Source: Aurantiochytrium sp. KH105 (lineage: Eukaryota > Sar > Bigyra > Thraustochytrida > Thraustochytriidae). Taken from it: DNA of 64,000 nt. The stretch is taken from the NCBI GenBank assembly GCA_003116975.1, contig BGKB01000097.1:124001-188000 (forward strand), written 5' to 3'. Every line of letters starts with the position of its first letter. The stretch's first letter is position 1. The notes beneath the pieces are model-generated. The model ran no database searches and was not told the DNA's origin. It worked only from the letters and a program-made list of their open reading frames with translations. Shown piece after piece: positions 35,101 through 63,364 of the stretch. A program made the translations under genes and the position numbers.

Positions 35101-36395
35101 TGTCACGCGTCATTTGCGACCCAAGCGCAAAGCACATGAGAAGGCACATGAAGAAGCTACGGTCGGGAGCCGGAGACCACGCGGCCCTTCCTGCCCATCT
35201 TGATTCTGCACTTTACCAGTGGAGAGACGACGCTATTGCCAGTCGTGCTTTGCTGGAGTTTTTGTGGCAAGGCAACCCTGTTGACTTTTTGGTATCATTG
35301 ATGGAATCGACATTGTTGGCATGCCCGAGCCCTTGGGTCAGCGATGACGCTGGCAAGAAGGACTCAATTTTGGTGCCGAGTCTCTTGCACGCTGCATCGG
35401 AACAAGACAAGGAGGATGGACGAAGAAGGGTCGGCGACTCTGCTCTTGCCTACGTCGACTTCGAGCTTTTGCCAAAGGGCTTCTTCCAGCGTCTCGTGGC
35501 TCTTCTTTTGCAGAGATTTCCAGGTGTAGCGACCGTGGGTAAGAAGCTTTTCGCGGACGTCGCAAGTGTTGATTTCAACGGCATGGAGTGCCTCATGGAG
35601 GTATCGCAACGACGCATCACCTTTCGCTTCGGCAATGCCAGACAGAATCGCCCGCTCGTATCGCTTCTCGCATTGTTGAGCAAGGAGCTGAAGGAAATCG
35701 ACGAAACGTTCATGAGGGGCAAACTGGGACAAAGGTTATATGTCAGCTCCGACGGAACCGACAATGACAAGTCTTGTGCTCTTGCGGAATCCCTTGCACA
35801 CCCTCTGGAGGGCAACACGATTCGAACGCGATCGTCATGTCAACCACTTGAAGCCTTTGCGTCGTTCGTGGATGGGGCCTCTCAGGCTCAAATTTTTGGA
35901 GAGTCAGCGGGCAGCGCAGGATTTCGGTTTGATGCTTTTCTCGGTCACGCGTGGGGTCCCGGCAGTGTCACGCATGAGAGGGTGAAGGCTGTCGAGCGAA
36001 GGCTGGCGGAGCTAGGCATTCGGTGTTGGATTGATGCAAATAACATTGAGCCAGAGATCTATCGATCCATGGCGTTTGGCATCGACAAGTCCCGGACCAC
36101 CGTCATCTTTGTGACGCGCGAATACATGGAAAAGGTGAATGCGGGGCGATCAACGAATGACTATTGTTGCATGGAGTTTCACTACGCGATGGACCGCCAT
36201 AAACCTGTACGTGTGATTGCGTGCGTGATCGACGAGGATATGGCGGACAAAGACAGATGGGATGGCGAATTTCGATTCCGTTGGTGTGGAATACCGCTGT
36301 TCGTCCCAATGCATAGCGAGGTTGAACCTACTGATGCGGAGATTGCCGAACTTGCACAGAGGATCAAAGACACGATTGCCCAATACCAGCTGTAG
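29198..36395 (+). CDS. LRR-Roc-COR-TIR (ROCO family) protein, 23 exons
   Basis: Twenty-three exons, all joined in phase 2, give 1,504 aa. Exon starts: 29198, 29396, 29660, 29925, 30190, 30456, 30675, 30838, 31154, 31352, 31549, 31734, 31917, 32122, 32296, 32503, 32724, 32911, 33094, 33295, 33484, 33645, 33803. Nineteen exons are one ribonuclease-inhibitor-type LRR each: 84 nt (28 aa), except 33484 with 87 nt. Typical units read LxxNxIGDxGAxALAxALxxN. Exons 30675 and 30838 (residues about 164-248) instead encode a charged, coiled-coil-like insert. The last exon carries the Roc GTPase with P-loop GKAAAGKT (692-699) and DYGGQE switch II (839-844), a COR domain (about 1010-1290), and a TIR domain from 1348 (FRFDAFLGHAW) with Glu1432 in CCMEFHYA at the position of the catalytic Glu of TIR NADases. 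A signalling or immune-type receptor is inferred. Confidence 0.9.
29396..30539 (+). repeat. Tandem array of about 265-bp exon-plus-intron LRR units
   Basis: Five successive LRR exons start 264, 265, 265 and 266 bp apart (29396, 29660, 29925, 30190, 30456). Introns 3 to 5 are almost identical, sharing blocks such as GACTGACCAGCTCGCGATAC and GATCATGCTGCCATGCATGC. Other introns of the gene differ in sequence and give exon spacings of about 160-220 bp. Confidence 0.93.
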
Positions 36396-41000: not shown

Positions 41001-42490
41001 TGTCGGAAGATACCCTTGAAGCCAAGGTGAATAAAGTGGCAGAGGAGCCCAAAGGAGCGGCGAGTCTTGTCGCTGCAGCTACTCAGGGTTCGCAAACAAG
41101 TGACACAGCGAGCGAGACAATTGATCCAAATGCCCTTGCAAATCCTGAAGAGCGACGCGAAGCGCGCGCTCGCGAGCGAGCGCGGCGAGACGAAAAGCTT
41201 CGCAAAGCTGAAGCAAAGGCAGAGAAGAAGCGAGAAGCAAGAGTTCAAGCTCGTAAAGTACACTTGCTTTCCGCACAAGCGTTGCACAAAGAAACACGAG
41301 AAAAGGAACGAGCAGCTCATCTTGCGCAAAAGAAAACTCTCATGGAGAAGGCGCAAGCGCAGCATGAAATGGACGCGAACTCCAAGGAAGCAATCAAGAA
41401 GAAACGCTTTGAAGCCGTGTTAAAAGAGAAACAAGCTGCTCAGCAAGAGCGCGCCAAGGCTCGCGCAGCCGAAAAGGCGCAACGTGCAGCAGATCTCAAA
41501 AGCTGGACACAGCTGTATCACGACAGTGTGAGCAAGGAGCGAGCGCGTCATGCTGCAGAACAAGATGCAATCTTGCAGAATTGTTTGAAAGAACGAAAAA
41601 TTGCTCAAGAGAAGCGCGAAGTTCGGCGCTCGACCCTTGCGCAGGACAAGGCAACGCGACAATACGCAAATATTTTCGAAGCTGTGCGCGCTGGAGTTGC
41701 CGATGTCTCAGTCCTTGCACCACTGGTTCCCGAGACTGGGGATGGACTCATTGACGTCCGCGACGAATTCGGGCGCACTGTGTTGCATGAAGCGAGTTGG
41801 CTTGGATTCTCATCTGTGGCCAAAGCGTTACTCACGCTCGCCGAGAAACTTACTCCGGGGGGGTCTAGTTCGCTCGTGCAGGCAGTTGACTCGTGCTGCA
41901 CCCTTACAACGCCACTCCACGAAGCAACGCGAGCTGGTTGGGGCGGAGATCTTATTCGCGTTCTTCTTGCGGCAGGCGCAAACATTAGCGCACGCGATCA
42001 TCTGGGTGACATCCCGCTACATTGCGCTGCGCGTCACGGACACTATCCGACCATTCGCATTTTGGTCGAGGTCGAAGGCGGGCTGGAGACCCTTTTGGTC
42101 CGCAACTACAAGGGGCGAACAGCCTTGGAACAAGCGGAGATGCGCAATGATGGTCTGCTTCCCAAACGGATCGAAGAGTTGCCCGCCGCCAGAACCAAGC
42201 GCAGGCTTGGCATCGAAACGGCCCCGGCGGAAGAACCCGCTTCGACGGAGCTCGAGAGCGGCGAAGTCTTTGTTTTTGACGGCGATTTCTCTCAGACTGT
42301 GGACATTTTGCGCACGTTTCACAACGCGGCGATCGAGCAATTCGGTCCCGAGCTCAAAGCCAAGCGAAAGCTGCAAAACCGACATGGAAGTCTGGGCTCT
42401 CCCTCGCAGGCCCGTAAGTCCAAACTTCAAAGAGACAACTTCTCTATTCGCAACATGTTTCCGCAAGGTGCGTCTACCTCAAAGAAATAA
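38045..42490 (+). CDS. Multi-WW, IQ, coiled-coil and ankyrin-repeat protein
   Basis: A single-exon gene of 1,481 aa from an ATG at 38045. The first 820 residues hold eleven WW-like repeats, each ending in patterns such as YYYNxxTxExxWxxP, at DWLKQV, DWVEAL, EWSKVF, GWREML, EWVQVF, VWKKLV, EWVEVF, LWQELH, KWYTAV, RWYEVF and QWVKIF. After repeats 3, 5, 7 and 10 there are IQ-like helices (for example MLLQSAFRAKLARRDVR) expected to bind calmodulin or light chains. Residues about 900-945 are an EQEQ-rich stretch, then a long basic/acidic coiled coil (about 1,025-1,215). Three ankyrin-like repeats follow (GRTVLHEASWLG, TTPLHEATRAGW, GDIPLHCAARHG). WW modules bind proline-rich ligands, so a scaffold, possibly cytoskeletal, is likely. 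Repeats 3-4, 5-6 and 7-8 plus IQ look like an internally duplicated block. Confidence 0.9.
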   Translation: MASTKDWLKQVDESNNVFFYNAQTGETQWEAPEGYIDTLGKDWVEALDESGTLYYYNIITGEASWDHPAKDLVAPADADANAAADTAVTEEENLAAADDAFPVKEGDEALASAQDQADDDAPSADKQDMPEWSKVFDPSSKAYYYVNNHTLASQWDEPEGFQEVDLAKVKLLMAPEVRAAMLLQSAFRAKLARRDVRVQRAKTAASSTDEVSGWREMLDPASGFPYYFNSETNEVTWEKPADFNKVDADNSTRKKSDPISEEEERENKLVDKDQGASGAKAEIQSDIDSNDAEDSPSGEHVSATKDLGPEEVVEDASEMISNDAETSRRMIPEWVQVFDPQTKLYYFFNNHTFESQWEEPEGFERLDFSKAKHLMAPELRAALMMQCAFRSKKARQAVRAQRGLVSSSKNLNAIDGEESSGVWKKLVDPKTELPYYYNRETHETTWDPPVEEVECGEKNAKTEAGPPATNSSGDAHMPAEDTTDSVSPSVEWVEVFDPQSKRYYFFNNRTLESQWDEPEGFERIDFSKAKVLMAPELRAAIMLQCAFRAKQARQDVRIQRGKVMADENDGVLWQELHDPASGQSYFYNRETQETTWDKPRELMTESERERADEAAKAPKWYTAVDTDSGDVYFFNAETEEVSWTKPEDFDGDETLIASDQEENERLRHIRRRMALAVQGKLRKRTKEMDARMSVVRAEQAKASVVAKHRWYEVFDEEHGAYYYYDVDTRVTVWEKPADFVMEASDELLHAALLMQGLFRAKKARSDVRLLRAIELTKDEPPEKEPQWVKIFDKDANAHYWFHKRLHEISWEPPLQLTLSQGEPGSELSEMDPDESPRMEGDDQALAVTDAEIAAVDDKNSNDANTRSDTGAVEVAEAVATGSQQGSQDEQPREQEPAQEHEQKESSPPPSHEQEQEQEQEQEQEQQENQQQEQQPQESARRISSNPGTLEQEGLLSKEKDNTKRTDNGESVETARQPETVSDAVDVSEDTLEAKVNKVAEEPKGAASLVAAATQGSQTSDTASETIDPNALANPEERREARARERARRDEKLRKAEAKAEKKREARVQARKVHLLSAQALHKETREKERAAHLAQKKTLMEKAQAQHEMDANSKEAIKKKRFEAVLKEKQAAQQERAKARAAEKAQRAADLKSWTQLYHDSVSKERARHAAEQDAILQNCLKERKIAQEKREVRRSTLAQDKATRQYANIFEAVRAGVADVSVLAPLVPETGDGLIDVRDEFGRTVLHEASWLGFSSVAKALLTLAEKLTPGGSSSLVQAVDSCCTLTTPLHEATRAGWGGDLIRVLLAAGANISARDHLGDIPLHCAARHGHYPTIRILVEVEGGLETLLVRNYKGRTALEQAEMRNDGLLPKRIEELPAARTKRRLGIETAPAEEPASTELESGEVFVFDGDFSQTVDILRTFHNAAIEQFGPELKAKRKLQNRHGSLGSPSQARKSKLQRDNFSIRNMFPQGASTSKK

Positions 42491-48432: not shown

Positions 48433-51400
48433 TTACCAGCATGCGGACCAGCCTCTGTAAAGTTGCGCGAGGTTTTCGTGAGAGGTGGCCTGATTGATGA
48501 GTTTCTCCACCTGCTCTTTCACCGACAATGCACTTGGTTCGCCATCGACCTCACCCGAGCCAGCAAAGTCTGTCCCTTGCAACTTGTCGCGTACGCGGTC
48601 AATCACATCCACAGCGCGCTGGTTCAAGGTTGACTTCTCTGGTTTCTGGGGTCCACTTCCCGCGATCTTGTCGCTTGACGCGGAATGCCGTCTGTTTTCA
48701 CTTCTTGCTGCAGTCGATGAAAATCCATTCGCAGTTGCGTCTTTGCTTGCACCAGCTTCCGCCACAGCGGCAGCGACGGCGGCAGAGGCACTTACAGCAG
48801 TGTCACCTTCCTTGCCATCCTTGTCTGGATTAAGAATGCGCCAGGAGACAAGCGGGTCGTAGACAAAGGCCTCAAGCATAGTGAGAATCGATTCGTGGTT
48901 TTCGCGCAAAACATGCATGACCGCATGGCACGTGTGTCGAAAAGTACCATCAATCCCGGACGCCTCCATAGCCTTCACGAGCATTCGTGTGAGACGAAAG
49001 GGCACCGTTTCCGGAAAGTTCTCGCGATGCATGGTGGACTCGAAACAATCGCCAAAGTCAATGTGCAAAATTCGACCGGAGCTGCGCTCGAGCATCAAAT
49101 TGGAGGGATGCCGATCGCCAAGTCCCAAAATGTAGCCCACCATGGACATCGCTGCGAGGGAGCGTGTGTAGTTGGTCCGACGATCAATCCAAACCTCGGA
49201 ATTCGGACTTTTCAGCCAAAGAACACGTGCCAGATCCTGCCCAGAGGTGTTATCCAGCGCATGCTGAAAGATCTCAACCTTTTGCATCACCGTCAGGTCA
49301 TCGTACTTGGTGTAGAACTCATTCATCAGCTTGTGCTCAACTTGAATCGGAATGCGCCGCGACTCGCGGTACTCTTCAATAAGGCGGTGCAGAGTGTCGG
49401 TGTGAGGCACCCACTCCACAACACCCGAACTCGAGGAAAGGGGAACCACGGCATACCGCTGGATCTCGAGACCGAGCTTGCTTGTGTCTTCGTCAAGATG
49501 CAAGAGTCCGTTCACGAGACCAAAGAGCTGCATGACACGTTCGTCCATGCGCAGGTCCTCGTTGCCCTTCAGAAGAAACATGTGAGAGAACCCGTCACTG
49601 CCCATGATGGTGATCACTCGAGGTCTTTGCTTGGAACTAATGATGCGAACCGACGGCTCGAAACCTGCAATGCGAATGACCGGCGCACCCACCTGATAGG
49701 TGCCAGGAACGGCGAGCTGCAGGTCGCGCGCGCGCAAGAGAATGGGCGATACGTTTCGAAGCTCAATCTGCTTGTGCTGGAGTTGCTGCTTGATTTGACG
49801 GAAAACGCCATAGTACAGATCCCAAGCCTGGTCCAAAAACGTCTTGTTTTTGTTCCCTGAGGCTTTGAACTGCCAAAGCCATTCTGCAGCCTCTTCCAGA
49901 TTCAGGCCATACGCCTGCACAAAAGCTACCTCGTGCAGGGTTTGAGGCCCATCTTCGTCCATGTCGTGGTGTAACGAAATGAGAATTTCCGCCATCGCAT
50001 CCACGTCAGGGTTCTCTGTAAAGTATGCTCGCGAAGCGTCTTCGAGCCGAACATACCACTTTTCGTGCCAGAGCACCGCGATACGAATGAGTTCACGGGA
50101 TACGACAATCGCTTCCTCCGCAAGGGCCGGGTAAAGATTGTGCATGCCGCGAATCACGTGCTTTGCGGCAGCAGAACGCGCGGGGTCATCCGACTTGGAC
50201 GCCACCGTTAGGGGGTAAATGAGCGTCTGCGGATGCGCTTCTCCAATGCGAAGCAAGAGCTCGCACACGAGATCGCCATCGGTCTTGAGACGCGCAATCA
50301 GTTGCGGAATGACGCCCAGCCACACATCAATCTCAAGTGTTCCAAAACCCTCGTGCACGGAGCGCTTCACCGCCTCCTCTTCGTAATGACTGAACCAAAG
50401 AGTCAAGAGTCGAAGAATGTCTTGCAAGACGTCAATTCCGCGTTCACGTCCAAGAGAGATGGAGCGAAAGAAGCCATTGATCGCAGGCACGACAAATTGT
50501 CGCTGATCTTGGAGCGCCCCACCCTCGTCCGTCTTTGCTTCACCATCCGCATGCGCAGCGGCAAGTTGCGGCGAGACCGAAGCTCGAAAGTTGGCCAAAG
50601 CCCAGGCATGCCAGGCCTTGTAGTTGTTTGGATCCAAGTCCGTCGCGTCCCGATAACACTGCAGAATCTGTCCGAAAATGTGCTTGCTCTGTTCTTCGAG
50701 CAGCAGCGGGTCCCGTGACATGAGACTGTCACCTCTCAATGACGTTGAGTCATAGCCTTTGTGAATCGTCGCTGTGATGGACATGCGCGCGCGTCGAGGG
50801 CGCGCTCGAGAGCGTGGCACAGGGCCTAAGCGTGGGGATCCTGGAGGTGATGTCGGCCGCGCGTCAGATTCATGGTTTGCCCCACCGCGCCCATTCTGTG
50901 CAGATGGCGCGCGCTCCATCGGCTGCTGGGGAGCAACAGGAGGGCGGGCTCCAGAGTCCGTGTCGCGTGGGCTCGGCGCCAAGGCGGCCTGTTTGTCCTT
51001 GACTGCGATCAGCCACGCACCCAACTTATTACTGCACTGGACCACGAGTTTACGCAGCGCGTCTTTGCGTTGGAAATTCACGTCGAGCGCTTGTAAATCA
51101 GGAATAAGATAATCTTCAAGATCCGCATCGCTTTCATCAACACGAGGGCCTTTGCCCTCGGCTTCGTCAGCTGCATTCATCTCCGCGCGAAGCTGATCGA
51201 GATCACTCATGCTGAACAACGCGTTTGCATCCCCGATCACCGCCGCGGACGTCTTTGGCTCGTTCGAGGCGAAGACATCGCCGCCGTCGGAAAGGTCCCC
51301 GCTTCCCTCCTCGTCACCACTCGTGAATGCGGATCGAGGCGACCCAGCCTCTTCACTGACCTTGTCACCTCTTCGCAGCTTGTGCAAGCGTCGGGAAGAA

Positions 51401-54400
51401 CTCGCAAACATACTACCATCGTTGCTGCTCTGGCCACTGTCATCCCTTGCGTGCTCACGTGTAGCGTGTTCCGTACGAAGAAATGAGGAACTTTGCAGAC
51501 CAAGGTCGAGCGGGTGGTCTGCTTCCAGGCATCGCATGAGTACCAGTCGGAGACGTCGCAGACGGTGAACCGCCTCGACGTGGTGGCCGCTCGCCCAAAT
51601 GTACTTTACATACGCAAAGGCCACGCGTGGTTTCACCTTGAACTTGCGCGCACGGATGTGGGCACGCCCGCGCTCGCTGGGGGTCACCATGTGAAAACTC
51701 ATGTCTTCCTTGCTAAAGAACTGGAGATCTGCCTTTTCCTCGTCATAATCAAGTAAAGCAGTCAAACTTCGCGTTCCCTCGGCACGCAACGACATGCCTT
51801 GGTTGTCGATGCTGGCTCCGATGCCAAGACGCATCAAAGCCTGCAGCGAAAGATTCAAAAGCTTTTCTTTGCGCGCAATCTTGGCAAAATGGAGCCAGGT
51901 GTCCAGATCGTCAACGGGATCGACAATGATGCTCCGATAGGCAAGAATCAGCATGTAAGACGAAGCTGTATTCTGCACACCTTGCAGCCGTGCCGACCAT
52001 ACGCGCCGCAGACGATTGAGATATAATTTTGCCTCCTCGGTGTTCTCTTGGCGCAAAAGCTTCTTGTAATCTAGAATCTCTTGAAGCTCGACCATGTGCT
52101 GGACTTGGATCAGATGCGGATACGCACGTCCGTAGCTCTCCGCGACGAGCGAGGTGAGCGCTTTGTCCAGGATCGTATACGAATGATCGATAAAGGTTTG
52201 GGCATGCTCTAACCGGCCTTCATGCAGTGCCAAAATCACATTCAGGGTGCAGCCATCCGTGCGACTTGTATCAAGATAAGGAACAAACCGAGCAAGGTTT
52301 TCCCACTTACCCAGCGCATACGATGCAAGACCACCAATGGTCGCGAGCTTTTGCGCGTACCACCGAAGGTCTGACTCCGTGCTTTGTTCAGCATTCGTTG
52401 CCATATTGCTGCGCTGTGAAATCTCTTGCGAGTACCCCGAGACTTCGGCCACCTCGCGATGTTTTGACAATTCTTTTTCGACTTCGTTTGACACAACGCC
52501 TGAAAACGCGCCCATGCCCTTGTAGTAGTCGCGAATGTCGCGAGATACCGGACTCAAGCTGTCGCCTGCAGCGTCAAAGGGGCTGGTCGCACGCACGGCG
52601 CCCACATATGCCTGATCCGGAACGTGTGGGCCTAGGTCGACGGGTGACGAGAGGCCCACCAACGGCTGTGGGTACGAAGTTGGCGACTTCTCACCAAGCG
52701 AAGAATAAATTCGGTCTGTTGACGCGCTCTCGGCGTTGTTGGGGGCTGGAACGAAGCTTCCACTTTGGCCAAAGAGCGCCTTGAGTTCGGGTTGGGGCCT
52801 TTCGGTGGCGCTCTTTGGCGAACGAGGGCCTGTCACTTCATCTTCGCCATAGGCCAATCGGAGTGCTCCAAGTCGTGACTCAGAGAGTTCCTCGTCCGTG
52901 TTGTGGGAAACTACGGATGAAGAGGCGTGCGAGCGATTCCGCATAAGCACCCCGATGGGCTGGCCGAGCGTCGACGTGGTGCCGCCGGGACCCTCGTCCA
53001 GAGATCGACGCCGACCCGAAGCATGGTCACCATTGCCCAAGGACGGATCGAGAATGGCGAGATGATCCGAGGATCCTCGAAATTTGGGCAGAAAGTGTGA
53101 CAAGACAGGTGGAGACGAGGCAGAGCCCGGTGAAGACGGCGTTGCATCGGCTCGGGGAGAGTGCGCGCTGCCCTCGCGAGGTGACGACGCGACTCGTGCA
53201 AGACTTTGATCGATCTCGCGCAGCTCAGCCCAGTGACCCTCGAGGAGGGACAGCACAGAATTCCACCCTCCGACCTTGTTGAGACAGCGCAGCCGGCCCA
53301 CCGTCAGATTGAGTTGCTCCTTGACGGGCCACGATGATCTTGAAAGGCCATTGCGGCTTGATGAAGGTTGGCGGCCGCGCAAATCGCACTCGAGCTGATG
53401 CATCTTTTGATCGTATGCCTGCAATGCCTCGTCCCATTTTTGCAGACGCTCGTACCACAGAGGTTTGACTTCTGTTGTTTCGGAAAAGTGAGATCGCGCA
53501 AACAGGACAACTCCAGCTGCAGCGTGGTGCATTTCGAGATTGTTGTTGATGTTGATGAGCTTTTCAATGCAGTCCTCGGGAACGGTGCGAAACTCGAGCT
53601 CTTTAAAGCGCAGCGCCTTGGCATACGCCTGACAACGGATTGCCACATCGCTCAACACACGAAGATCGATGGGCAGCGGCTTGTCATCGTGTTCCATAAA
53701 GTCCACAAGACCTAGGAAGACCTGCAAAAGGTCTTTGGGGATCTTGGGCGATTTCATCGCCAGCTCCATTTGATCGACCAGGCTATCACGCGCATTACTC
53801 TCAAGGTTGTCCCAACAGGAGAGAAATGCGGCGTTGAAGAGTTCGCGCGCGACGGGGTCGTACGTTTCTGCGAGCGCATGGCATACATAAATAGCCTCAA
53901 TGGGTGACTGCCGCAACAGCGCGAGCGTGAAGCGTCGCATCCACTCAAGCCACTCTGCTTCTGTGCTGATTTGCGCCGTGTGCCATGCGGGTTTGAGCTG
54001 GCTCAGATCCATACTGTGCGAACGAACCATGGACTGCGTGCGTGTCTTGCGCGTCGCACTTTCCTTGAGTGGTTTCTCAAGGTACAAAAGTTCCACTTCG
54101 TTTTTGGCGTTGAGCCACTTTGGGCGGTCGAGCGCCTGTCCCCGAAGCACGCGGTTAACCAGGGCCAGATAAGACTCAATGGCTGCGCCTTCCTTGCCTA
54201 CGATTCCTGTCGTCGAATGCGGTGATCCAGGCAGCAACAAGAAGAGGCCGGACGCTACCACTTCGCCAAGGGCCTTCTCCACAAGGGATACATAGACGGC
54301 AAAGTCTTCCTCGAGACGAAAGACAAGAGACTCGAGAGCTTCCATGACGAGAATAAAGAGGGTCCGTTCTCCCTTGTTGCGAGCCACTTGCGCGGCAGCA

Positions 54401-57400
54401 CTCGCTGTTGAGCTCGATGCCTCGGTCGCCGAAGATTCGCTCGACTCGGGCACAGAGACAGAAGCTGCAGCTGCCGCACTACGCGCTTTGCAATCTTCCA
54501 AGGCATGCACGATTGGATGAATAATAAGAGAAGCGTACTCACTGACGTTGCATGAGCGTATGATGAACTTGAGCGTGCTTACAGACTTGGCGCGAATCTC
54601 CAGCGGGACCAACGTACTATCGATGAGCGCACACAGCGTCGGGATGACGAGATAGAGGTGTTCGTCAATGGCGGATCTGAAGCGTGACAAGACGTGCAAC
54701 ACATGCGTTGAGTCGACAAATTGAAGAGCGTCTCGCTCGCTGTGCAAAAGACTGAGCATGTCATCGAGCACGGTAGCCATATAAGGCCGCAAGGCGTCCG
54801 GCGAAAGAGTATCCACCAGAGCGTCTACGAGTTCTACGATGGCAGTCTTGTGTTTTCCGTTCCAGATTTCGTGGTTCAGTTCAAAGATTGCCGCCACATA
54901 TGGCGTGATGTCGTCTTTGACAATTTTCACGAGAAAGATCAGCTCTTGAAGCTTTTTGGAAGTGATAGGTCGGCCATGCAGGCCCGCGCGCTGGATAACG
55001 TGGATCAAACGGGGCATGACGAGCGGGAGAAAGAGCGAAAAATTTGACTCGAGCGCCCGGAAAACACGATTGATCGCCTCGATGGCCGACATGAGATGCT
55101 CTTCGTGCTCAAGCTGACTCCGCGCAAGGACCTTGGACAGCGCCGTAATGGCGACGCGAGGATAGTACTCGGCGTTCATTTGCACGGCTGACGGAAGGAT
55201 TGCGCTTGCAGAAGTTTGATCGAGGAGGTCTGCCTGGACCTCTTCGTCTGCAAGCTGGTCTTGAATTTGCTGGTTGGCTGCGGCTGCTGCATAGGCTGCG
55301 GCTCCAGTGAATACCTGGGCACCATTCGTGGCATGCCAGGCACTGTTCGCTCCTGCAGCTTCATCGAGGGCCGAGCCCGCAGACACGCTCTGCGCTGCTA
55401 CTGCGGTGCTTGCATTTGCAGGACCGGTAGCTTTCGTCGCGTCTGCACGCGTTCCCGCAGCGCCTGAAACCGAGATCGTAGAGGCCTTCACGGGCGTCTG
55501 CGCCAACACGTTTGGTCGATTGGCTGCAGAGGCTGCAAAGCTATGATCTCCAGGCTTGCTGCTGAGATTCTCGGCGCCCGTCGAGCGACCAGGGGCTTGG
55601 TGGAACTGATACAAGGTACTCTGGCGGCGCTTGTTCTTTGAAGTGTGCGACATGACATTAATTTGCTGGGCCACAACGCGGATCGAAGACTTGCGCCGAC
55701 CTCGACCTCGTCCGTTCAGAGCACGCGCAGACGCTCTGCGCGCCTGATTGCTGCTGCTCGTAAGTGTGTCTTGAAACGTAGGATTTGCCGTTGCCGCGCG
55801 TCGGTGCGCACCACCTGGAATGAAACCTGGCGGCACACCCGCGACGTGGGCATTTGTCCCAGTGACCCCAGGTGGTCCCGGCAGCATCATCAGACCGGAG
55901 TCCTGGCTCTGCTGCGGTTCAGCACTTGGGAAAAGCGCGGATCCTCGTCCTCCAGGATGGCCAAAGTTCGCTCCGCCAAGGGTGCGACGAGCTCCGCTGT
56001 GGTCGCCGCCAAGAATGCTCGACATTTGCTCGAGGCCGGACATGGGAAAGGCGTCGGCAGGTGGCGGGCCCGGTGGCGGAGGTGGCGGAGGCAGAGGTGG
56101 GAGATCCGGGAACGCAGTGGACGGAAGATGAGCCGAAGATGGTCGAGGCACTGGACGAATGACAGGCGAGACTTCATGTGCTGGAACCGAGGGCTGTGGA
56201 GAATGTAAAATAGCAGCTTCATTGATCCCCTTGGGAAGGGAATCATGGCTCTCCTCTGTTGCGAGGGTCTCGGACGAAGTCCCAGGCACAGGATACAAAT
56301 CAGACTTGACGAGATAGGAAGTCCGGCGAGATCGGGATCCCCAGAGACCCCCAGAAGCTGCTGGCATTGGTCTCGAGCCGGGAGCCTCACCCGACTGCCA
56401 GCCAGACCGAGTGGTCGCACGGGCTCCAGAAAGTATCGCGGTCTCCAGCGGTCGGTTGTGATCTGCATACAAAGTGGGAGGCGGCTGCAAGGATGAAGAG
56501 TTTTTGGACAGAGCCCGAAAGGAGCCACTGCCGAAGCCATCAGTGGTGCTAGCAGACGCGTGATAGGAATGTTGCTGGCCGTGACTATCGAGGTCGAAGC
56601 TGCTACCCTCTACAAAACTATCTGTAAAGTACACTTCCTCCTCGGGTTCGCTTGAGCTGTCGTCTGCTTCATCATCGGAATCGACTTTCCTTGCAGCGAA
56701 AGCTTGGAGAACTGCAGCTGGAAGGTCGCGACTGCCGCCAAAGGCCAACAAGAGCTTTGGAATGGACGCTGCACTTTCGCCTTCAAGAGAACTTCCTACA
56801 CCTTCCGCCGCGAGTTGCTGGTGATTCGTAAAGAGCCAGGGGTCGAGAGCGCCGAGTACACCATAGGTGATCATCGCTTGCTTGCGAAGTTCTACAGGAG
56901 CGCCCGGCATGACCATGGTCTTGAGAATGCTTTGGAGAAGTTGGGGGAAACACAGGTAAGGCCAAATGGGAAGAGCTGCGTTGCTTGCCATGATGGCGAG
57001 CGTGGAGAGTGCCACCTCTCGCTTGAGAAAGGTGGAGGACGATCCGTCATCAAGAATGGTGACAATGATGGGAAGCACGCGCGCCAAGAGTGGCGAAAGC
57101 GTCGCTTCATCACCGACACGTGCAACTTCGCCCAAAGTTGCAAGCATGGCCGTTGCTACACCACGATGCACGCGATGAATCTTCGGGAGAAGAGTGTCAA
57201 TGACCGTGGAAATGTGCGGACGCGCCAACGCTGGATTCAATGACCGAATGAGGAGACCAAGCAACATGACCGACTCTTCTCGGTGCTTTGGTTCGACGGC
57301 AAAATTCAGCTCATTGAGATGGCGTAAGAGCACCGTGTGCACAGATGGCATAATCCTCGAAGGCGCTTGTGATGCGAAGCAACCTAGCGCATCCACTGCG

Positions 57401-60399
57401 ACGGCGCGAACTTCAAAGTTTCGATCATTGGCCAGCACCATAAAGGAGCGGATAAGCTCTGGGCTCTGCAAAAGAATTGGGGCGAATCGTTGCGAGAGGT
57501 CTTCCACCACGTACTGGCGCAACGCCACGTCCTCATCCGTCATGGCCACCATGACGAGCCGCGCCATGATGTGATGGACAGCATGCATGTCAAGGGAAGG
57601 AACGCGGTCATCGTCTGCATATCGATCCTCCTCGTCAACGACAAAGACTCCATTTGATGAGGCTTGCGTATTGGCGGTATTAGAGGTTAGCGGAGGCGTT
57701 TGCGGTCTTCCTTGCTGCTGCTGTTGTTGTTGCTGCTGTTGCTGCTGCTTTGGCTTTGTGCTGTCCGAAGCGGCTGAGGCACTGTTCGTTGCATCGTCCT
57801 TATTTCGAGCATCCACAGAAAAGATGCCAGCATGCGCAAACATGCTCTCCGAAAGTGAGAATCGTTGGCGAGGGTCTGACCCAGAGCTCTGTGAAGACCT
57901 CTTGCTTAATATTCGCGAAGGCGACCCTGATGCAAAGGTTTTACCCGAGACTGCAGCGGCGAGCTTGCAGGTGGCAGCATGAGCCGCAAGCGCACGCGTG
58001 AGCACATAGCCTGCAGCTCGGCATGCTTCCATTCTCACGCGGGGATCCGCGGCCTCGAAATGCCGCGCGACAAGTGATACGAGAATCGGGATAAGGTCAA
58101 TGCTCTCAAACTTGAACGTCGACAAGGTCCTGAGAGCCAGAATTTGCATTTGCGCGCTTGGGTCAGAGTCCGCGTACTGCTCCTTTTCCGATCTTTGCTT
58201 CAAGACGTTGGAGTTCACGGTCGTACCGGTGTTGGCCCAAAAATTTGCGGCCCTCCATTTGAAGTCCTTCCAGACTTCCCGCATAGACGACCCATTGTCC
58301 GAGGTGCGCGAATCCGCACGAGCGGAGCGGTGAGAAGCGCTTGCGGGCGACGCGTTTGCAGCGCTTTCTCGTCTGGAAACATACGAGCTGAGCGTCTCGG
58401 TCTCGAGTTGGTTGTTGAGGGCAAGCTTGCGCGTGAGCTTGAACTGCTTTTCTTGGACGTGCTGCTGAAAAGCGCGATTTTTCTTGCCGCCGCGGACCGC
58501 GGAGACAGACAAAATGGCCGTCACTTCCTGAAGAAGGCGCGCCTGAAGGACAATGGCGTCGTTGGCAAGGGTGTCGGTGAGAACAGCTAGCGTGGCGACG
58601 AGGCCTTCGCTAAGACCGCCACCGAATAAATAGGGAATGAGGGCGCGGAGAGGTTCATTAGAACCGAGGACGCCTACAACGTTGTGGGACTGCAAAAGCA
58701 GGCGGAGACAGTAAAGTGCCTCGGGGCAAAAGGGCCATCTGGGTGTGGCCGTGAGGCCGTCGCGAATGGTTTCGATGACTTGCAAAAGGTGGCTTTCGAT
58801 AATCGCAGAGGCCTTGTTGAGCGTGCTCATTTGGCCAAGAGCACGAAAAGCTGCCGGGCGGCTGCTCACGCGTGCGCTCTTTGCGGATTCGTCAGTGTTT
58901 GTTGTGCCGTTCGCAGACGAATTGGAAGTAGTCGAAGCCGACGAAGGTGGCACTGGGGACGAGATGGGAGGCGTTGAAGAGGGCGGCGGGGGTGGTGGCG
59001 TCGATGGCATGCTGCTGCTATTGGCTTTGCCCCGATCCCAAGTCGCGGCTAAGCGATGTTGCCCCGCGGAAGATGATGCGGAAGTGGCGGCTTGGCCTTG
59101 ACCTGATCCCGAAGTCGGAATTCCTGCGTTCATGGGAGATGAACTTGCCGACGAAATGAGGTAACGAAGACTTTGTGAGAGAAAAACAGCAACCGATGAC
59201 GGATCTGGACAATGCAGCGCCAATCGAGGAAGAATCATCATGACAGTTTCTCGTACGAGCGGATCGCTATGGAACCGCACATCGGGAAGCCAAATGCACT
59301 GGTCAAAAATTTCATCGAAACGAAAGCGTATGAACTCCCCCGTACACTCGCCAATCAGCTCGTAGAACCCTAGCAAAGCGCCGTGCAAGGCCGCAGCATT
59401 GCGAAAACTCTGTCCACTCGAATGCGAGAGGGTAGATGGGCCTGCATCACCATTTGCACCGGGACCAGCACCCGCAGCAGCACCAGCGCCACCCGCGTGG
59501 TCGTGGTGGTGGTGATGCAATGCGTCACCCGATCCTGTTGATCCGTGTCCGCTGCCGCTGATGAAGCCAAAGAGGCTGCTTGGCTTGCTCCCCGCAGCGG
59601 CTCGCTTGAGCTTCGAGAAGCGACGACTTCGTGGAGATGTGACACCGCCTCTGGACCCCGTACTGGCGCTGCGAGCCCCGGAAAAGGATCCGTATGGGTC
59701 TGGGAACTGTTTCCTTGCGAGTTCCCAAATGTCGTTGTACAGTTTGTATTTTTGACGCGCCTCGCGCTGTGCGATGACGCGCAGTGCGTAACGAAGAGCA
59801 ATGGAGGCCGTGAAGCGAATACGGAAGTGTTTGTCACACAGTGCACTGTAAATACTGCCAAAGAAGTCTTCGCTATGAATGTTAAACAGTGTTGGCGCGT
59901 TGAGGGCAAACTCTTTGAGCATGAGCACAGCGGCCAAGCGCTTCATTTCATGATTCGTTTTGGCGTCGAGCCAGGCGATTGCCTTTTTGGACTCTCGCTC
60001 GACAAAAAAGGATGTCACAGAGGCTGGACCGGTAGCCAAGGTTCCGAGCACGTGACATGCAGATTCGAGCGCCACGAGGCCAGCGCTCTTGTCCGAGGCA
60101 GGAATGCGGCCCGAAGCTTCCTGCTGGACGATGCGTGTTAAAAGGTTTATGACCACTACCTGAATGTTTCTATTTTTCACCTCGGGGTGAGCCATGTGAA
60201 CGATTTCGTTAATGAGGATCGTGCACGCGAGACTGTCTGTGGAGCTCGAGGTTTTCTTCCACACCTCCATTTGAGCAATGACAGTTTTTAGAACGCGAGC
60301 AAAGCTCTCGCTTGACCGGCTGCGACTTTCTTGCTCCAAGTAGCGCCGCACGCGCTTTGTCGCAATGATGCGGTCATCTTTGTTTTTGGTGCGGAGCGA
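48433..60399 (-). CDS. TOR: TOR serine/threonine kinase (PIKK), unusually large
   Basis: One open exon of 11,967 nt (3,988 codons from the acceptor at 60399) encodes a complete TOR minus its first exon. HEAT repeats fill the N-terminal half, followed by FAT domain, FRB (near 49780-50125: ELIRIAVLWHEKW ... QAWDLYYGVF), kinase domain with GDRHPSNLML catalytic loop and HIDFGDCFE (DFG at 49051-49059), and FATC ending in GWSACW. TOR is normally about 2,500 aa. The excess is long disordered inserts: His- and Gly-rich near 59,500, polyQ near 57,720, a Pro-rich block near 55,900-56,150, and others near 52,400-53,200 and 50,760-51,450. TOR is the central growth and nutrient kinase. The reading frame enters a stop just upstream of the CTGTAG acceptor, so a short first exon must exist; a candidate ATG at 60564 (MAAWEAHVLREIKSL) fits the family but I could not fix its donor. 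Confidence 0.96.
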   Translation of the reverse strand, partial: SLRTKNKDDRIIATKRVRRYLEQESRSRSSESFARVLKTVIAQMEVWKKTSSSTDSLACTILINEIVHMAHPEVKNRNIQVVVINLLTRIVQQEASGRIPASDKSAGLVALESACHVLGTLATGPASVTSFFVERESKKAIAWLDAKTNHEMKRLAAVLMLKEFALNAPTLFNIHSEDFFGSIYSALCDKHFRIRFTASIALRYALRVIAQREARQKYKLYNDIWELARKQFPDPYGSFSGARSASTGSRGGVTSPRSRRFSKLKRAAAGSKPSSLFGFISGSGHGSTGSGDALHHHHHDHAGGAGAAAGAGPGANGDAGPSTLSHSSGQSFRNAAALHGALLGFYELIGECTGEFIRFRFDEIFDQCIWLPDVRFHSDPLVRETVMMILPRLALHCPDPSSVAVFLSQSLRYLISSASSSPMNAGIPTSGSGQGQAATSASSSAGQHRLAATWDRGKANSSSMPSTPPPPPPSSTPPISSPVPPSSASTTSNSSANGTTNTDESAKSARVSSRPAAFRALGQMSTLNKASAIIESHLLQVIETIRDGLTATPRWPFCPEALYCLRLLLQSHNVVGVLGSNEPLRALIPYLFGGGLSEGLVATLAVLTDTLANDAIVLQARLLQEVTAILSVSAVRGGKKNRAFQQHVQEKQFKLTRKLALNNQLETETLSSYVSRRESAANASPASASHRSARADSRTSDNGSSMREVWKDFKWRAANFWANTGTTVNSNVLKQRSEKEQYADSDPSAQMQILALRTLSTFKFESIDLIPILVSLVARHFEAADPRVRMEACRAAGYVLTRALAAHAATCKLAAAVSGKTFASGSPSRILSKRSSQSSGSDPRQRFSLSESMFAHAGIFSVDARNKDDATNSASAASDSTKPKQQQQQQQQQQQQGRPQTPPLTSNTANTQASSNGVFVVDEEDRYADDDRVPSLDMHAVHHIMARLVMVAMTDEDVALRQYVVEDLSQRFAPILLQSPELIRSFMVLANDRNFEVRAVAVDALGCFASQAPSRIMPSVHTVLLRHLNELNFAVEPKHREESVMLLGLLIRSLNPALARPHISTVIDTLLPKIHRVHRGVATAMLATLGEVARVGDEATLSPLLARVLPIIVTILDDGSSSTFLKREVALSTLAIMASNAALPIWPYLCFPQLLQSILKTMVMPGAPVELRKQAMITYGVLGALDPWLFTNHQQLAAEGVGSSLEGESAASIPKLLLAFGGSRDLPAAVLQAFAARKVDSDDEADDSSSEPEEEVYFTDSFVEGSSFDLDSHGQQHSYHASASTTDGFGSGSFRALSKNSSSLQPPPTLYADHNRPLETAILSGARATTRSGWQSGEAPGSRPMPAASGGLWGSRSRRTSYLVKSDLYPVPGTSSETLATEESHDSLPKGINEAAILHSPQPSVPAHEVSPVIRPVPRPSSAHLPSTAFPDLPPLPPPPPPPGPPPADAFPMSGLEQMSSILGGDHSGARRTLGGANFGHPGGRGSALFPSAEPQQSQDSGLMMLPGPPGVTGTNAHVAGVPPGFIPGGAHRRAATANPTFQDTLTSSSNQARRASARALNGRGRGRRKSSIRVVAQQINVMSHTSKNKRRQSTLYQFHQAPGRSTGAENLSSKPGDHSFAASAANRPNVLAQTPVKASTISVSGAAGTRADATKATGPANASTAVAAQSVSAGSALDEAAGANSAWHATNGAQVFTGAAAYAAAAANQQIQDQLADEEVQADLLDQTSASAILPSAVQMNAEYYPRVAITALSKVLARSQLEHEEHLMSAIEAINRVFRALESNFSLFLPLVMPRLIHVIQRAGLHGRPITSKKLQELIFLVKIVKDDITPYVAAIFELNHEIWNGKHKTAIVELVDALVDTLSPDALRPYMATVLDDMLSLLHSERDALQFVDSTHVLHVLSRFRSAIDEHLYLVIPTLCALIDSTLVPLEIRAKSVSTLKFIIRSCNVSEYASLIIHPIVHALEDCKARSAAAAASVSVPESSESSATEASSSTASAAAQVARNKGERTLFILVMEALESLVFRLEEDFAVYVSLVEKALGEVVASGLFLLLPGSPHSTTGIVGKEGAAIESYLALVNRVLRGQALDRPKWLNAKNEVELLYLEKPLKESATRKTRTQSMVRSHSMDLSQLKPAWHTAQISTEAEWLEWMRRFTLALLRQSPIEAIYVCHALAETYDPVARELFNAAFLSCWDNLESNARDSLVDQMELAMKSPKIPKDLLQVFLGLVDFMEHDDKPLPIDLRVLSDVAIRCQAYAKALRFKELEFRTVPEDCIEKLININNNLEMHHAAAGVVLFARSHFSETTEVKPLWYERLQKWDEALQAYDQKMHQLECDLRGRQPSSSRNGLSRSSWPVKEQLNLTVGRLRCLNKVGGWNSVLSLLEGHWAELREIDQSLARVASSPREGSAHSPRADATPSSPGSASSPPVLSHFLPKFRGSSDHLAILDPSLGNGDHASGRRRSLDEGPGGTTSTLGQPIGVLMRNRSHASSSVVSHNTDEELSESRLGALRLAYGEDEVTGPRSPKSATERPQPELKALFGQSGSFVPAPNNAESASTDRIYSSLGEKSPTSYPQPLVGLSSPVDLGPHVPDQAYVGAVRATSPFDAAGDSLSPVSRDIRDYYKGMGAFSGVVSNEVEKELSKHREVAEVSGYSQEISQRSNMATNAEQSTESDLRWYAQKLATIGGLASYALGKWENLARFVPYLDTSRTDGCTLNVILALHEGRLEHAQTFIDHSYTILDKALTSLVAESYGRAYPHLIQVQHMVELQEILDYKKLLRQENTEEAKLYLNRLRRVWSARLQGVQNTASSYMLILAYRSIIVDPVDDLDTWLHFAKIARKEKLLNLSLQALMRLGIGASIDNQGMSLRAEGTRSLTALLDYDEEKADLQFFSKEDMSFHMVTPSERGRAHIRARKFKVKPRVAFAYVKYIWASGHHVEAVHRLRRLRLVLMRCLEADHPLDLGLQSSSFLRTEHATREHARDDSGQSSNDGSMFASSSRRLHKLRRGDKVSEEAGSPRSAFTSGDEEGSGDLSDGGDVFASNEPKTSAAVIGDANALFSMSDLDQLRAEMNAADEAEGKGPRVDESDADLEDYLIPDLQALDVNFQRKDALRKLVVQCSNKLGAWLIAVKDKQAALAPSPRDTDSGARPPVAPQQPMERAPSAQNGRGGANHESDARPTSPPGSPRLGPVPRSRARPRRARMSITATIHKGYDSTSLRGDSLMSRDPLLLEEQSKHIFGQILQCYRDATDLDPNNYKAWHAWALANFRASVSPQLAAAHADGEAKTDEGGALQDQRQFVVPAINGFFRSISLGRERGIDVLQDILRLLTLWFSHYEEEAVKRSVHEGFGTLEIDVWLGVIPQLIARLKTDGDLVCELLLRIGEAHPQTLIYPLTVASKSDDPARSAAAKHVIRGMHNLYPALAEEAIVVSRELIRIAVLWHEKWYVRLEDASRAYFTENPDVDAMAEILISLHHDMDEDGPQTLHEVAFVQAYGLNLEEAAEWLWQFKASGNKNKTFLDQAWDLYYGVFRQIKQQLQHKQIELRNVSPILLRARDLQLAVPGTYQVGAPVIRIAGFEPSVRIISSKQRPRVITIMGSDGFSHMFLLKGNEDLRMDERVMQLFGLVNGLLHLDEDTSKLGLEIQRYAVVPLSSSSGVVEWVPHTDTLHRLIEEYRESRRIPIQVEHKLMNEFYTKYDDLTVMQKVEIFQHALDNTSGQDLARVLWLKSPNSEVWIDRRTNYTRSLAAMSMVGYILGLGDRHPSNLMLERSSGRILHIDFGDCFESTMHRENFPETVPFRLTRMLVKAMEASGIDGTFRHTCHAVMHVLRENHESILTMLEAFVYDPLVSWRILNPDKDGKEGDTAVSASAAVAAAVAEAGASKDATANGFSSTAARSENRRHSASSDKIAGSGPQKPEKSTLNQRAVDVIDRVRDKLQGTDFAGSGEVDGEPSALSVKEQVEKLINQATSHENLAQLYRGWSACW

Positions 60400-61120: not shown

Positions 61121-63364
61121 ATGCTCGTCCACTCGGCGCGGACGTCCACGACGAAGCGGGACACGGACGCCTGGCTGGAGAGCGAGGGCGGACCCGGCCT
61201 CGCTCTGGCGCTTGCCGGGTGCCGCAAGTTCTGGGCCGACGACGAAGACAGCAACGACCAAGGTCCCAAGACGGGCGAAAACGCCAGCGACGCCCAAGGG
61301 CTCAGCGGCGGGCGCCTGCGGACGCTCATTGTGATTCCGCCAAAGTGGCGTGAGGTGGCTGTGTTGGCGCTTGGCGAAACGCGATTGCCACGGCTCGACT
61401 TTCGCTGCTCTGTCATTTTGACGAGTTGTCCCAAGCTCGAACGTGTGGACGAAGGATACACCGTGAATGGGGACCTGACCATCGAGCATTGCAACGAGCT
61501 CGTCGAGTTGCCGCCGAATTTAGCCGTCTACGGCTCGCTGACGATTCTTCGCTGCGCCAAATTCGCGCGACTCGGACCTGGAACCTTTGTTTCGGGGGAC
61601 TGCCGCATCCAGGGTTGCAAAGCCTTCCAGCACCTCCCCTCAGAGTTCCGAATCGGCGGAAATTTGGAGTTAAACATGTTGGACGAACTCGAGACGCTTC
61701 CTCGTGATCTTGCGATAGGAGGGCGTGCAATCTTTTCCTATGGCCCGACGCTGGCTCTCCGCACGGACGAAGAAATTCTCGCGCGGACCGCTCCCGATCG
61801 AGTCAAGAGCGAGATGGTAAGAAAACTGCAAGTACCTACGCATCGCCGAGCCGTCGTGGCAGGAAGCTTGCGTGCTCTCGGCTGCAAGCGACTTGAGCTG
61901 GGCGAAAACTCGTGGGTAGGCGGGTCGCTTTGCGTCGCTTCGGAGGGCGGGCCGACGGGCCTGCTGGGTTCATCGACAATTCCATCCCCGCGACTTCTTC
62001 CATTTTCAAGACTATTCGTCGGTGGAAATCTATATCTTGAAGGTCTCACCGGCGCCGCCGAGCTCTCGGAGAACTTGAACGTACGCGGCGAATTTGTCGA
62101 GCTGCGTTCCTGCTGGGGCGTTTCTCACCTTCCCTCGAGTTTGTTCGACGTGCGCAGTGCGACGAAGCCGCTGTATATTCGACTTATTGGAACTGGTCTT
62201 CGCGGAGGCGCTCTTGATGTCGTTCGAACCATGCAAGTACCTCACGTGAACGTGGAAATTTCGGGCGCTCAGCTCGAGGAACTCGCGGCTGCCGCGCAGC
62301 AGTCCAGCAAGCAGCTCGCGGAGCAAGAGCTCGCGGAGCATATTCGTAACTGGCACCCAACACTTCACCTCGAAGTCGACCCGGCTTATCAACGAGGGCT
62401 CCAGCTCTTCCTCACCAAACTGAGGAGCTCCAAAGAATACACCAATGAGGTGCTCCGCGTCGGCCTCGTGCGCCGCGTGCGTGAAGCATTGGAGCTGCTA
62501 GCTCAGGAAGATCTTTCTACGCGTGCCGAGCTACTCTCGCGCGTGTGTGATAGTGTCGACAGCTGCGGAGATAAGCCCATCTGGGCACTGAACCAAATAT
62601 GCGCTCTGGCCGCCATTATCAAAGCTCGCAGGGACGCTGACGCGCTTCGCGAGGTGGGACGAGCCATCATGCGGCTTGGAATTGTACATGACTTTGCAAT
62701 GCGCAAAGTGACGGCGCTGGGTCCGAGTGTTGACGAGGTGTGCGTGTTTTTGAGGTACGAAGTTGATCTTCGCGAGCGCCTCGCGCTTCCTGTATCAGCG
62801 GTAGAAATGCTGTATCCTCACTATGTAAACATTGGGTCAGAAGACCTCGAGGCGGCCGCACGAGCTGTGGAAGCCGCCACGGAATCCTCATTCCAGCAGT
62901 GGCTCTCTGCTTGGGATGAGTGGCGTCGATTCCTGCGTTGGCAGCAAGTCGTTCCTTATGATCAGCTGCAATGTGCTGATGCTTCTTTTCGATTTTCGGG
63001 AGCATGGTCTCGCGCGGTTGTGCTCCGTGGCGAAGAGTGCGGATATGACGAGGTGGCCGAGTATTGGGAACGCACAGGGCTAGACCTTTTCACGAATTCT
63101 CGAGTTGATGCACAGACGTTATTTTGCGGGTTGTTGCGTGCGCCCGGCCCGTCTGAGTCCTCGCGTTTGCAGCTCGAGGGCGGAATCATTATGGCAGAGG
63201 ATGCAGCAGAGCAGAGAGACATTGACGCGGCCGAATCCGCGTCGTTCGCGCGACACCGCGCGGAAACAGTGGGCGGTGGCCGTCGTCGCAATGCTCTGTA
63301 CCGCCTCTGGGCAAGCATCTGTTCCATCCTTCCTTCGCGCAATAGCAAGGCTCTTTTGGTGTGA
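61121..63364 (+). CDS. LRR-like solenoid protein with C-terminal NEL-type E3 ubiquitin ligase domain
   Basis: An intronless gene of 747 aa from the ATG at 61121 (earlier in-frame ATGs back to 60365 read through GC-rich, TOR-overlapping sequence). Residues about 80-380 hold a solenoid of roughly 20-residue repeats such as VNGDLTIEHCNELVELPPNL and VGGNLYLEGLTGAAELSENL, a form common in bacterial LRR-like proteins. Residues about 400-610 match the NEL (novel E3 ligase) domain of IpaH/SspH/SlrP-type effectors: an FLTKLRSS helix, the catalytic C-x-D motif with Cys482 and Asp484 (SCGDKPIWALNQI), RLGIVHDFAMRKV, DEVCVFLRYEVDLRERLALP and a final WLSAWDEWRRFL. In NEL enzymes the Cys accepts ubiquitin from E2 and the LRR both binds targets and represses the enzyme. 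Catalytic residues look intact. Domain calls are from pattern; function in this host is inference. Confidence 0.85.
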   Translation: MLVHSARTSTTKRDTDAWLESEGGPGLALALAGCRKFWADDEDSNDQGPKTGENASDAQGLSGGRLRTLIVIPPKWREVAVLALGETRLPRLDFRCSVILTSCPKLERVDEGYTVNGDLTIEHCNELVELPPNLAVYGSLTILRCAKFARLGPGTFVSGDCRIQGCKAFQHLPSEFRIGGNLELNMLDELETLPRDLAIGGRAIFSYGPTLALRTDEEILARTAPDRVKSEMVRKLQVPTHRRAVVAGSLRALGCKRLELGENSWVGGSLCVASEGGPTGLLGSSTIPSPRLLPFSRLFVGGNLYLEGLTGAAELSENLNVRGEFVELRSCWGVSHLPSSLFDVRSATKPLYIRLIGTGLRGGALDVVRTMQVPHVNVEISGAQLEELAAAAQQSSKQLAEQELAEHIRNWHPTLHLEVDPAYQRGLQLFLTKLRSSKEYTNEVLRVGLVRRVREALELLAQEDLSTRAELLSRVCDSVDSCGDKPIWALNQICALAAIIKARRDADALREVGRAIMRLGIVHDFAMRKVTALGPSVDEVCVFLRYEVDLRERLALPVSAVEMLYPHYVNIGSEDLEAAARAVEAATESSFQQWLSAWDEWRRFLRWQQVVPYDQLQCADASFRFSGAWSRAVVLRGEECGYDEVAEYWERTGLDLFTNSRVDAQTLFCGLLRAPGPSESSRLQLEGGIIMAEDAAEQRDIDAAESASFARHRAETVGGGRRRNALYRLWASICSILPSRNSKALLV

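What the first reader, a model, noticed from the sequence alone, without database searches (positions are those of the whole stretch)
61121..63364. NEL-type (IpaH-like) ubiquitin ligase encoded in a eukaryotic genome
The C-terminal 210 residues carry the NEL domain layout, including the C-x-D catalytic motif (Cys482/Asp484) and the W..W..FL end, joined to an LRR-like solenoid as in bacterial effectors. NEL ligases are characterised in bacterial type III effectors that target eukaryotic ubiquitin systems. Finding one as an apparently resident, intron-free gene between TOR and a normal eukaryotic gene suggests horizontal acquisition and domestication. It could act in self-regulation or against intracellular bacteria. 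I know of no described function for such a protein in protists.
Basis: partly seen in the sequence, partly recalled or inferred. Interest (0 to 1): 0.88.

Follow-up and report, generated by a model that had tools for sequence, protein, structure and literature searches.

The report
Thraustochytrid NEL ubiquitin ligase with U-box-like end
A marine protist carries its own family of ubiquitin ligases built on a catalytic domain known from injected bacterial proteins, and where the bacterial versions have a helical E2-binding piece these appear to have a eukaryotic U-box-like piece instead.

Summary
Window 61121-63364 encodes a 747-residue protein whose residues 424-608 match Pfam NEL (PF14496) at 95 bits, E 4e-27, cut-off 24. 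Cys482, Asp484 and a further catalytic-type Asp538 are kept. It is no contaminant: it lies 0.77 kb from the TOR ORF, an allelic copy lies on another contig, and the same 76 Mb genome holds 32 NEL loci, read here as 16 genes in two haplotypes. All 16 keep C-x-D, and all 16 pairs show pN/pS of 0.30 or less. Named relatives are Hondaea and Thraustochytrium, so this is a resident thraustochytrid family, not one domesticated gene. Bacterial NEL ligases have a helical E2~Ub-binding 'thumb' directly after the catalytic core. Here a ~70-residue module follows that resembles a U-box in profile comparison and predicted fold; I found no such match in 12 bacterial NEL proteins. Best reading: an LRR-guided, cysteine-relay E3 that recruits E2 through a U-box-like domain, an RBR-like hybrid. 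The module is divergent in the window's own copy, and no member's module hits Pfam U-box. Activity, substrates and direction of gene transfer are untested.

The parts
61121..63364 (+). NEL gene, intron-free, 747 aa
   Evidence: translation; start supported by allele and P0002
61310..62296 (+). LRR-like beta-solenoid, residues ~64-392, presumed substrate-binding part
   Evidence: AlphaFold model and VIA matches to LRR proteins over 64-392; LRR chain 8z5u by sequence E 5e-5. No Pfam LRR hit for this protein
62330..62947 (+). NEL catalytic core, residues ~404-609
62564..62572 (+). Cys482-Gly483-Asp484, catalytic C-x-D
   Evidence: invariant C and D in 35 of 35 eukaryotic and 12 of 12 bacterial NEL cores
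62732..62734 (+). Asp538, presumed equivalent of IpaH9.8 Asp397
   Evidence: alignment to IpaH chains, numbering offset inferred; column census: D in 33 of 35 eukaryotic, 12 of 12 bacterial. Asp397 as catalytic base: PMC7728815 passage
62957..63175 (+). U-box-like module, residues ~613-685, in the place of the bacterial helical E2-Ub-binding thumb; divergent in this member
63176..63361 (+). low-confidence tail, residues 686-747; last stretch partly kept in P0002
60352..61120 (.). stretch between the head-to-head TOR ORF and this gene (TOR's true start codon not determined)
   Evidence: ORF coordinates
48433..60351 (-). TOR kinase ORF, eukaryotic context
   Evidence: Pfam PI3_PI4_kinase, FAT, FRB, FATC, mTOR_dom

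Best explanation
The gene encodes a resident thraustochytrid E3 ubiquitin ligase of NEL catalytic type. The LRR-like solenoid binds a cellular target. The NEL core takes ubiquitin on Cys482 as a thioester, with Asp484 and Asp538 assisting, and passes it to the target. The E2~ubiquitin is brought in not by the helical thumb of bacterial NELs but by a U-box-like module fused directly after the core, which makes the family an RBR-like hybrid of a RING/U-box recruiter and a cysteine relay. Shown: NEL domain, catalytic residues, gene family, low pN/pS, no detectable module match in the 12 bacterial NELs compared. Inferred from prediction and profiles: U-box-like fold, LRR fold. Inferred only: ligase activity, E2 recruitment by the module, endogenous targets. 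In the window's own copy the module is divergent, so its E2 contact may be weakened or altered.
For: NEL 95.3 bits. Top Foldseek matches of both models are SspH1, IpaH3, SspH2, SlrP. Catalytic C and D invariant in 47 of 47 cores compared. 32 loci over cut-off, 16 near-identical pairs, summed pN/pS 0.137 over 8871 codons of their C-terminal parts, window gene 0.13. Relatives in Hondaea fermentalgiana, Thraustochytrium sp. LLF1b and MMETSP transcripts. Module: profile match to six U-boxes of the same genome scores 28.6, against at most 18.95 in 100 column shuffles, at most 13.8 in 12 NEL-core windows and at most 13.6 in 60 N-terminal windows. Foldseek of relative P0003: Prp19 U-box 2bay chains prob 0.94-0.99, TM 0.61-0.64 by target length; E4B, E4A and LubX U-boxes 0.72-0.82. 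Window model: 2bay_F 0.87. Bacterial post-core regions score background. SspH1 has NEL 405-622 then the helices of the E2-Ub-binding domain 623-697 (PMC12506513 passages), and the last aligned residue pair of the window model with SspH1 is 609 = 623.
Against: No member's module hits Pfam U-box: 0 of 16 at E 10. A profile of the module finds no U-box chain in the PDB by sequence. Foldseek E-values for U-box rows are 0.3-3, only the probabilities are high. In VIA the SspH2 rows run on into the module (window model to 675 = 733, P0003 to 863 = 742) and a SlrP row to 628 = 705, with rmsd 12-30, so a remote relation to the bacterial thumb is not strictly excluded. The window's and P0002's modules lack the D-P-[VI] motif and are less conserved (43%) than the NEL core (64%). 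Model pTM is 0.45 and 0.51, so domain arrangement is unknown. No biochemical data.
Confidence: 0.68

Rival explanations
1. Eukaryotic NEL ligase whose core still recruits E2 by itself or through another surface; the C-terminal module is a small unrelated domain, a scaffold, or a much altered thumb that only looks like a U-box.
For: No Pfam U-box hit in 16 members; no PDB U-box by sequence; Foldseek E-values of 0.3 and more; SspH2 rows of VIA run into the module; motif lost in the window's copy.
Against: Profile score above all shuffles and real-domain decoys; 14 of the 50 rows shown for P0003 are named U-box or Ufd2, 8 of these at probability 0.72-0.99; the same position as the bacterial E2-binding thumb; bacterial thumbs match neither the module nor U-boxes.
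Confidence: 0.2
2. Anti-bacterial or cell-autonomous immune ligase: an expanded LRR family that recognises intracellular bacteria or their proteins and tags them.
For: LRR-like parts of variable length and added SPRY, SAM and ARM-like parts across about 16 genes; a Roc-COR-TIR gene lies 25 kb away; two Hondaea entries are named disease resistance proteins TAO1 and RPP5 by their source.
Against: All 16 allele pairs show pN/pS at or below 0.30; three orthologues in Hondaea are 96-99% identical; the source names probably reflect LRR similarity only (my inference).
Confidence: 0.15
3. Bacterial DNA misjoined into the assembly, or a recently acquired, decaying effector gene.
For: Closest characterised relatives are bacterial effectors.
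Against: Allele on a second contig 97.5% identical over 3115 bp including flanks, codon usage correlating 0.85 with TOR, 32 loci on many contigs, a transcript-derived orthologue and named thraustochytrid proteins, no stops, low pN/pS.
Confidence: 0.01

Closest known systems
Bacterial IpaH/SspH/SlrP and NopM NEL effectors (PF14496, IPR029487)
   Same: LRR plus NEL core, C-x-D catalytic motif, second Asp, W at the end of the core; 25-26% identity over the core to IpaH structures
   Different: No secretion context known; helical E2-Ub-binding thumb not found and a U-box-like module in its place; encoded in a eukaryotic nuclear genome as a gene family
Large Pseudomonas NEL proteins (L052-L060)
   Same: NEL core with C-x-D, 26-30% identity
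   Different: No U-box-like match after the core; 8 of 9 ORFs are at least 1560-1640 residues, 7 of them running off the fetched stretch
Hondaea fermentalgiana entries 'TAO1', 'RPP5' and FCC1311_016312 (NEL domain-containing)
   Same: Same family; orthologues of three other members of this genome at 95.8, 99.4 and 97.6% identity
   Different: No function described in what I saw; an orthologue of the window gene itself was not among the hits
U-box E3s (Prp19, E4A/E4B/Ufd2)
   Same: L-x-G...D-P-V motif and a Trp in the following helix in most modules; predicted fold
   Different: Below Pfam recognition; fused to a cysteine ligase core, which known U-box E3s lack (recalled)
RBR E3s such as HHARI
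   Same: Proposed logic only: E2 recruiter plus catalytic Cys in one chain (RING/HECT hybrid, PMC5548887 abstract and passages)
   Different: No sequence relation claimed; no RING or IBR hit in Pfam

Membership tests
NEL (PF14496) catalytic domain | Score above curated cut-off | tested here: met
   95.3 bits against 24
NEL (PF14496) catalytic domain | Catalytic C-x-D and downstream Asp | tested here: met
   C482, D484, D538
NEL (PF14496) catalytic domain | Thioester-forming E3 activity | not testable with these tools
   no biochemistry
IpaH/SspH-type effector | N-terminal LRR domain | tested here: met
IpaH/SspH-type effector | Helical C-terminal E2-Ub-binding thumb | tested here: not met
   by prediction only: 613-685 is strand-strand-helix then short elements, not two long antiparallel helices as in SspH1 (passage); module and bacterial post-core regions do not match. 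Against: SspH2 rows of VIA run into the module
IpaH/SspH-type effector | Secretion signal and T3SS context | not tested
   no secretion motif was searched for; the gene lies in a eukaryotic genome beside TOR
U-box domain | Pfam PF04564 recognition | tested here: not met
   0 of 16 modules at E 10
U-box domain | U-box fold | tested here: inconclusive
   P0003 model matches Prp19 U-box chains at prob 0.94-0.99, window model 0.87; E-values 0.6-1.5; predictions only
U-box domain | Profile similarity above decoys | tested here: met
   score 28.6 against decoy maxima 18.95, 13.8 and 13.6; six leave-one-out runs 26.8-27.7; 15 own sequences alone 22.9, 14 of other species alone 25.0
RBR E3 | RING1-IBR-RING2 zinc domains | tested here: not met
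   only NEL hit in Pfam at E 10

The most novel reading that the evidence does not exclude
A separate class of eukaryotic E3: NEL cysteine-relay core with its bacterial E2-binding thumb replaced at the same position by a U-box-like recruiter, founded once in thraustochytrids and expanded to about 16 genes with LRR-like, SPRY, SAM and ARM-like target-binding parts, working by an RBR-like hybrid mechanism on the cell's own proteins.
Probability: 0.55. Interest if true: 0.9.

Novelty: new variant of a known kind. Interest (0 to 1): 0.8.

Why it matters
The passages of the 2022 NEL review that I read treat NEL ligases as bacterial T3SS effectors (PMC9320238). A resident eukaryotic family would show that this catalytic solution can serve a cell's own ubiquitin system. 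A swap of the E2-binding part at the same position would be an independent route to an RBR-like hybrid ligase and would make thumb function testable. It also gives a non-pathogen source of NEL enzymes, in a group of protists cultured for DHA.

Tried and rejected
Contamination or misjoin: rejected. Viral origin: one scan of viral contigs gave 7 pattern matches and 0 relatives; phages gave one 1.9 kb Escherichia phage record; not pursued. Close bacterial donor: the genome-contig scan with patterns from the eukaryotic alignment gave 85 stretches, 9 relatives, all Pseudomonas at 26-30%; the patterns favour eukaryote-like motifs, so other bacteria were undersampled. A tblastn of plasmids gave 162 records, all under 60% identity, none covering 80% of the query. 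Direction of transfer: not resolvable with 12 bacterial rows, 9 Pseudomonas and 3 rhizobial. Other eukaryotes: the three protein searches scored only about 8000 candidates each and gave 1, 2 and 18 hits, so absence elsewhere is not shown; one Durusdinium trenchii record (P0007) may be a thraustochytrid contaminant, judged only from its compact fused gene model. Pfam and PDB sequence searches for the module found no U-box. VIA-align shows no U-box among its 50 rows for either model; the rows are filled by LRR and NEL matches, so this is no evidence either way. A missing linchpin Arg in the module was considered as a hint at an RBR-like open E2~Ub but dropped: by eye most U-boxes of the same genome lack it too, and PMC5548887 calls it a secondary factor in HHARI (passage). 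Taxon by 18S: not answered. The pairing of 32 loci into alleles is inferred from near-identity and from U-box genes pairing on the same contig pairs (11 loci, 5 pairs and one single). pN/pS was taken from 300 codons before the catalytic Cys to the stop, not over whole genes. Literature: ten searches of open PMC papers. I saw listings (often 10-25 of a longer list) and passages of 8 papers, and read no paper whole. Searches were poorly worded and tell little. No listing showed a eukaryotic or thraustochytrid NEL family; but one passage (PMC7145615) says that a domain of a green-algal NLR is highly homologous to NEL, and the Giardia inventory PMC7029713 lists PF14496 among the families it searched with (its result not seen). 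Subscription papers were not searched. Four of 35 modules lack my hand-made U-box motif pattern: N11, the window's, P0002 and P0019. P0017 was dropped from the profile comparison because of an insertion. N06, the window's allele, was left out of the tree as a duplicate.

Full report
What is there. Window 61121-63364 (+) is one uninterrupted ORF of 747 codons. The frame is open back to 60365, but the other allele (contig C200) has a stop about 30 codons before the same ATG, and the transcriptome relative P0002 (723 aa, 52% identity, end to end) begins at the matching Met, so the gene most likely starts at 61121 and has no intron. Pfam finds only NEL, PF14496: E 4.4e-27, 95.3 bits, cut-off 24, residues 424-608. 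NCBIfam points to IpaH, SspH2 and SlrP, far below their equivalog cut-offs. PDB chains of IpaH, SspH and SlrP match at E 1.4e-12 to 5e-9.

Catalytic residues. In 35 eukaryotic and 12 bacterial NEL cores the C and D of C-x-D are invariant. A second aspartate, Asp538 (33 of 35 eukaryotic, 12 of 12 bacterial), aligns with the VDE motif of IpaH9.8. I place it at Asp397 by counting with an assumed chain offset of 19; a passage of PMC7728815 says that Asp397 functions as a catalytic base in aminolysis.

Not contamination, not single. The assembly has 76.03 Mb in 367 contigs and the window is C97:124001-188000. A NEL search finds 32 loci above cut-off and rings in none of the 14 control genomes. They form 16 near-identical pairs (paired by eye; all 16 aligned), which I read as haplotypes: pS is 0.05-0.10 within pairs, and U-box genes pair on the same contigs, for example C4/C55 and C49/C90. 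Over the part from 300 codons before the catalytic Cys to the stop, summed pN/pS of the 16 pairs is 0.137 (8871 codons), the highest single pair 0.30; for the window gene it is 0.13 (24 synonymous, 9 non-synonymous differences in 568 codons). The allele matches the window at 97.5% over 3115 bp with both flanks, and codon usage of the gene correlates 0.85 with TOR (0.57-0.77 with three other window genes). TOR itself is clear.

Organism. A PfaA-like PUFA synthase is present at 930 bits, though below its model's cut-off of 1010 bits and with weaker hits of the same model in 11 of 14 control genomes. Three other NEL genes of this genome are 95.8, 99.4 and 97.6% identical to Hondaea fermentalgiana proteins. 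Hondaea and Thraustochytrium sp. LLF1b are Labyrinthulomycetes. I take the genome to be Hondaea or a near relative; no 18S comparison was obtained.

The family. A profile search returned 18 proteins, all with NEL. Named ones are Hondaea (3), Thraustochytrium sp. LLF1b (1, by taxid) and one Durusdinium trenchii record; the other 13 come from the jgi, lgn, ena and mmetsp collections without organism names. Architectures in this genome: LRR-like repeats (by eye) plus NEL in most; SPRY plus LRR plus NEL in two (N02, N09); SAM domains plus NEL in a 3539-codon ORF (N05); ARM-like plus NEL in N04, where the ARM score is below cut-off (18.5 against 20.6) but relatives P0005 and P0007 carry precomputed Pfam ARM hits. 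The tree puts all 35 eukaryotic rows on one side of a branch and 12 bacterial rows on the other, support 95/98. Many forks inside the eukaryotic side are unresolved. The root is a midpoint, so direction is open.

How it probably works. Step 1, target binding by the LRR-like solenoid: inferred from bacterial NELs and the predicted fold. Step 2, E2~Ub recruitment by the U-box-like module in the thumb's position: inferred. Step 3, transfer to Cys482: inferred from invariant residues. Step 4, aminolysis onto a target helped by Asp538: inferred. The nearest logic is the RING/HECT hybrid of RBR ligases (PMC5548887 abstract and passages). IpaH9.8 is autoinhibited by its LRR (PMC7728815 passages); whether that holds here is unknown. 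I favour endogenous targets, because pN/pS is low and orthologues are close; an immune role stays possible.

Novelty. Ten paper searches of open PMC text, seen as listings plus passages of 8 papers, showed no description of a eukaryotic NEL family or of a NEL with a U-box (two of them poorly worded). One passage does speak of NEL likeness in a eukaryote: a domain of a green-algal NLR is called highly homologous to NEL (PMC7145615); I did not test that protein. A NEL domain in a Hondaea protein is already recorded by name in UniRef. So the domain's presence is in databases; the family, its selection, its architectures and the thumb replacement appear undescribed in what I could search.

Noticed in passing
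window 33792-36395 (+): ORF with Roc, COR-A and a C-terminal TIR_2 domain (Roc-COR-TIR), a possible immune-type ROCO protein in a thraustochytrid.
   Followed up: no
window 38045-42490 (+): 1481-aa ORF with ten WW domains, IQ motif and ankyrin repeats.
   Followed up: no
G000 C31:323992-329179 (L026, L001) and C93 (L002, L028): Two NEL genes lie next to each other in divergent orientation on both haplotypes.
   Followed up: no
P0007: Durusdinium trenchii record (11.3 kb contig) with ARM-NEL-module fused to a PF01984 stretch; may be a labyrinthulomycete contaminant or a fused gene model.
   Followed up: no
L052-L060: Environmental-type Pseudomonas carry NEL proteins of at least 1560-1640 residues in 8 of 9 loci (7 run off the fetched stretch), much larger than IpaH.
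   Followed up: partly
P0001 residues 686-747, window 63176-63361: C-terminal tail ends in a short stretch (LPSR..KA) kept in P0002; possibly a targeting or membrane-contact element.
   Followed up: no
window 14001-15000: Strong AT skew (0.43) in a 1 kb block, the highest of the 64 blocks of the window.
   Followed up: no
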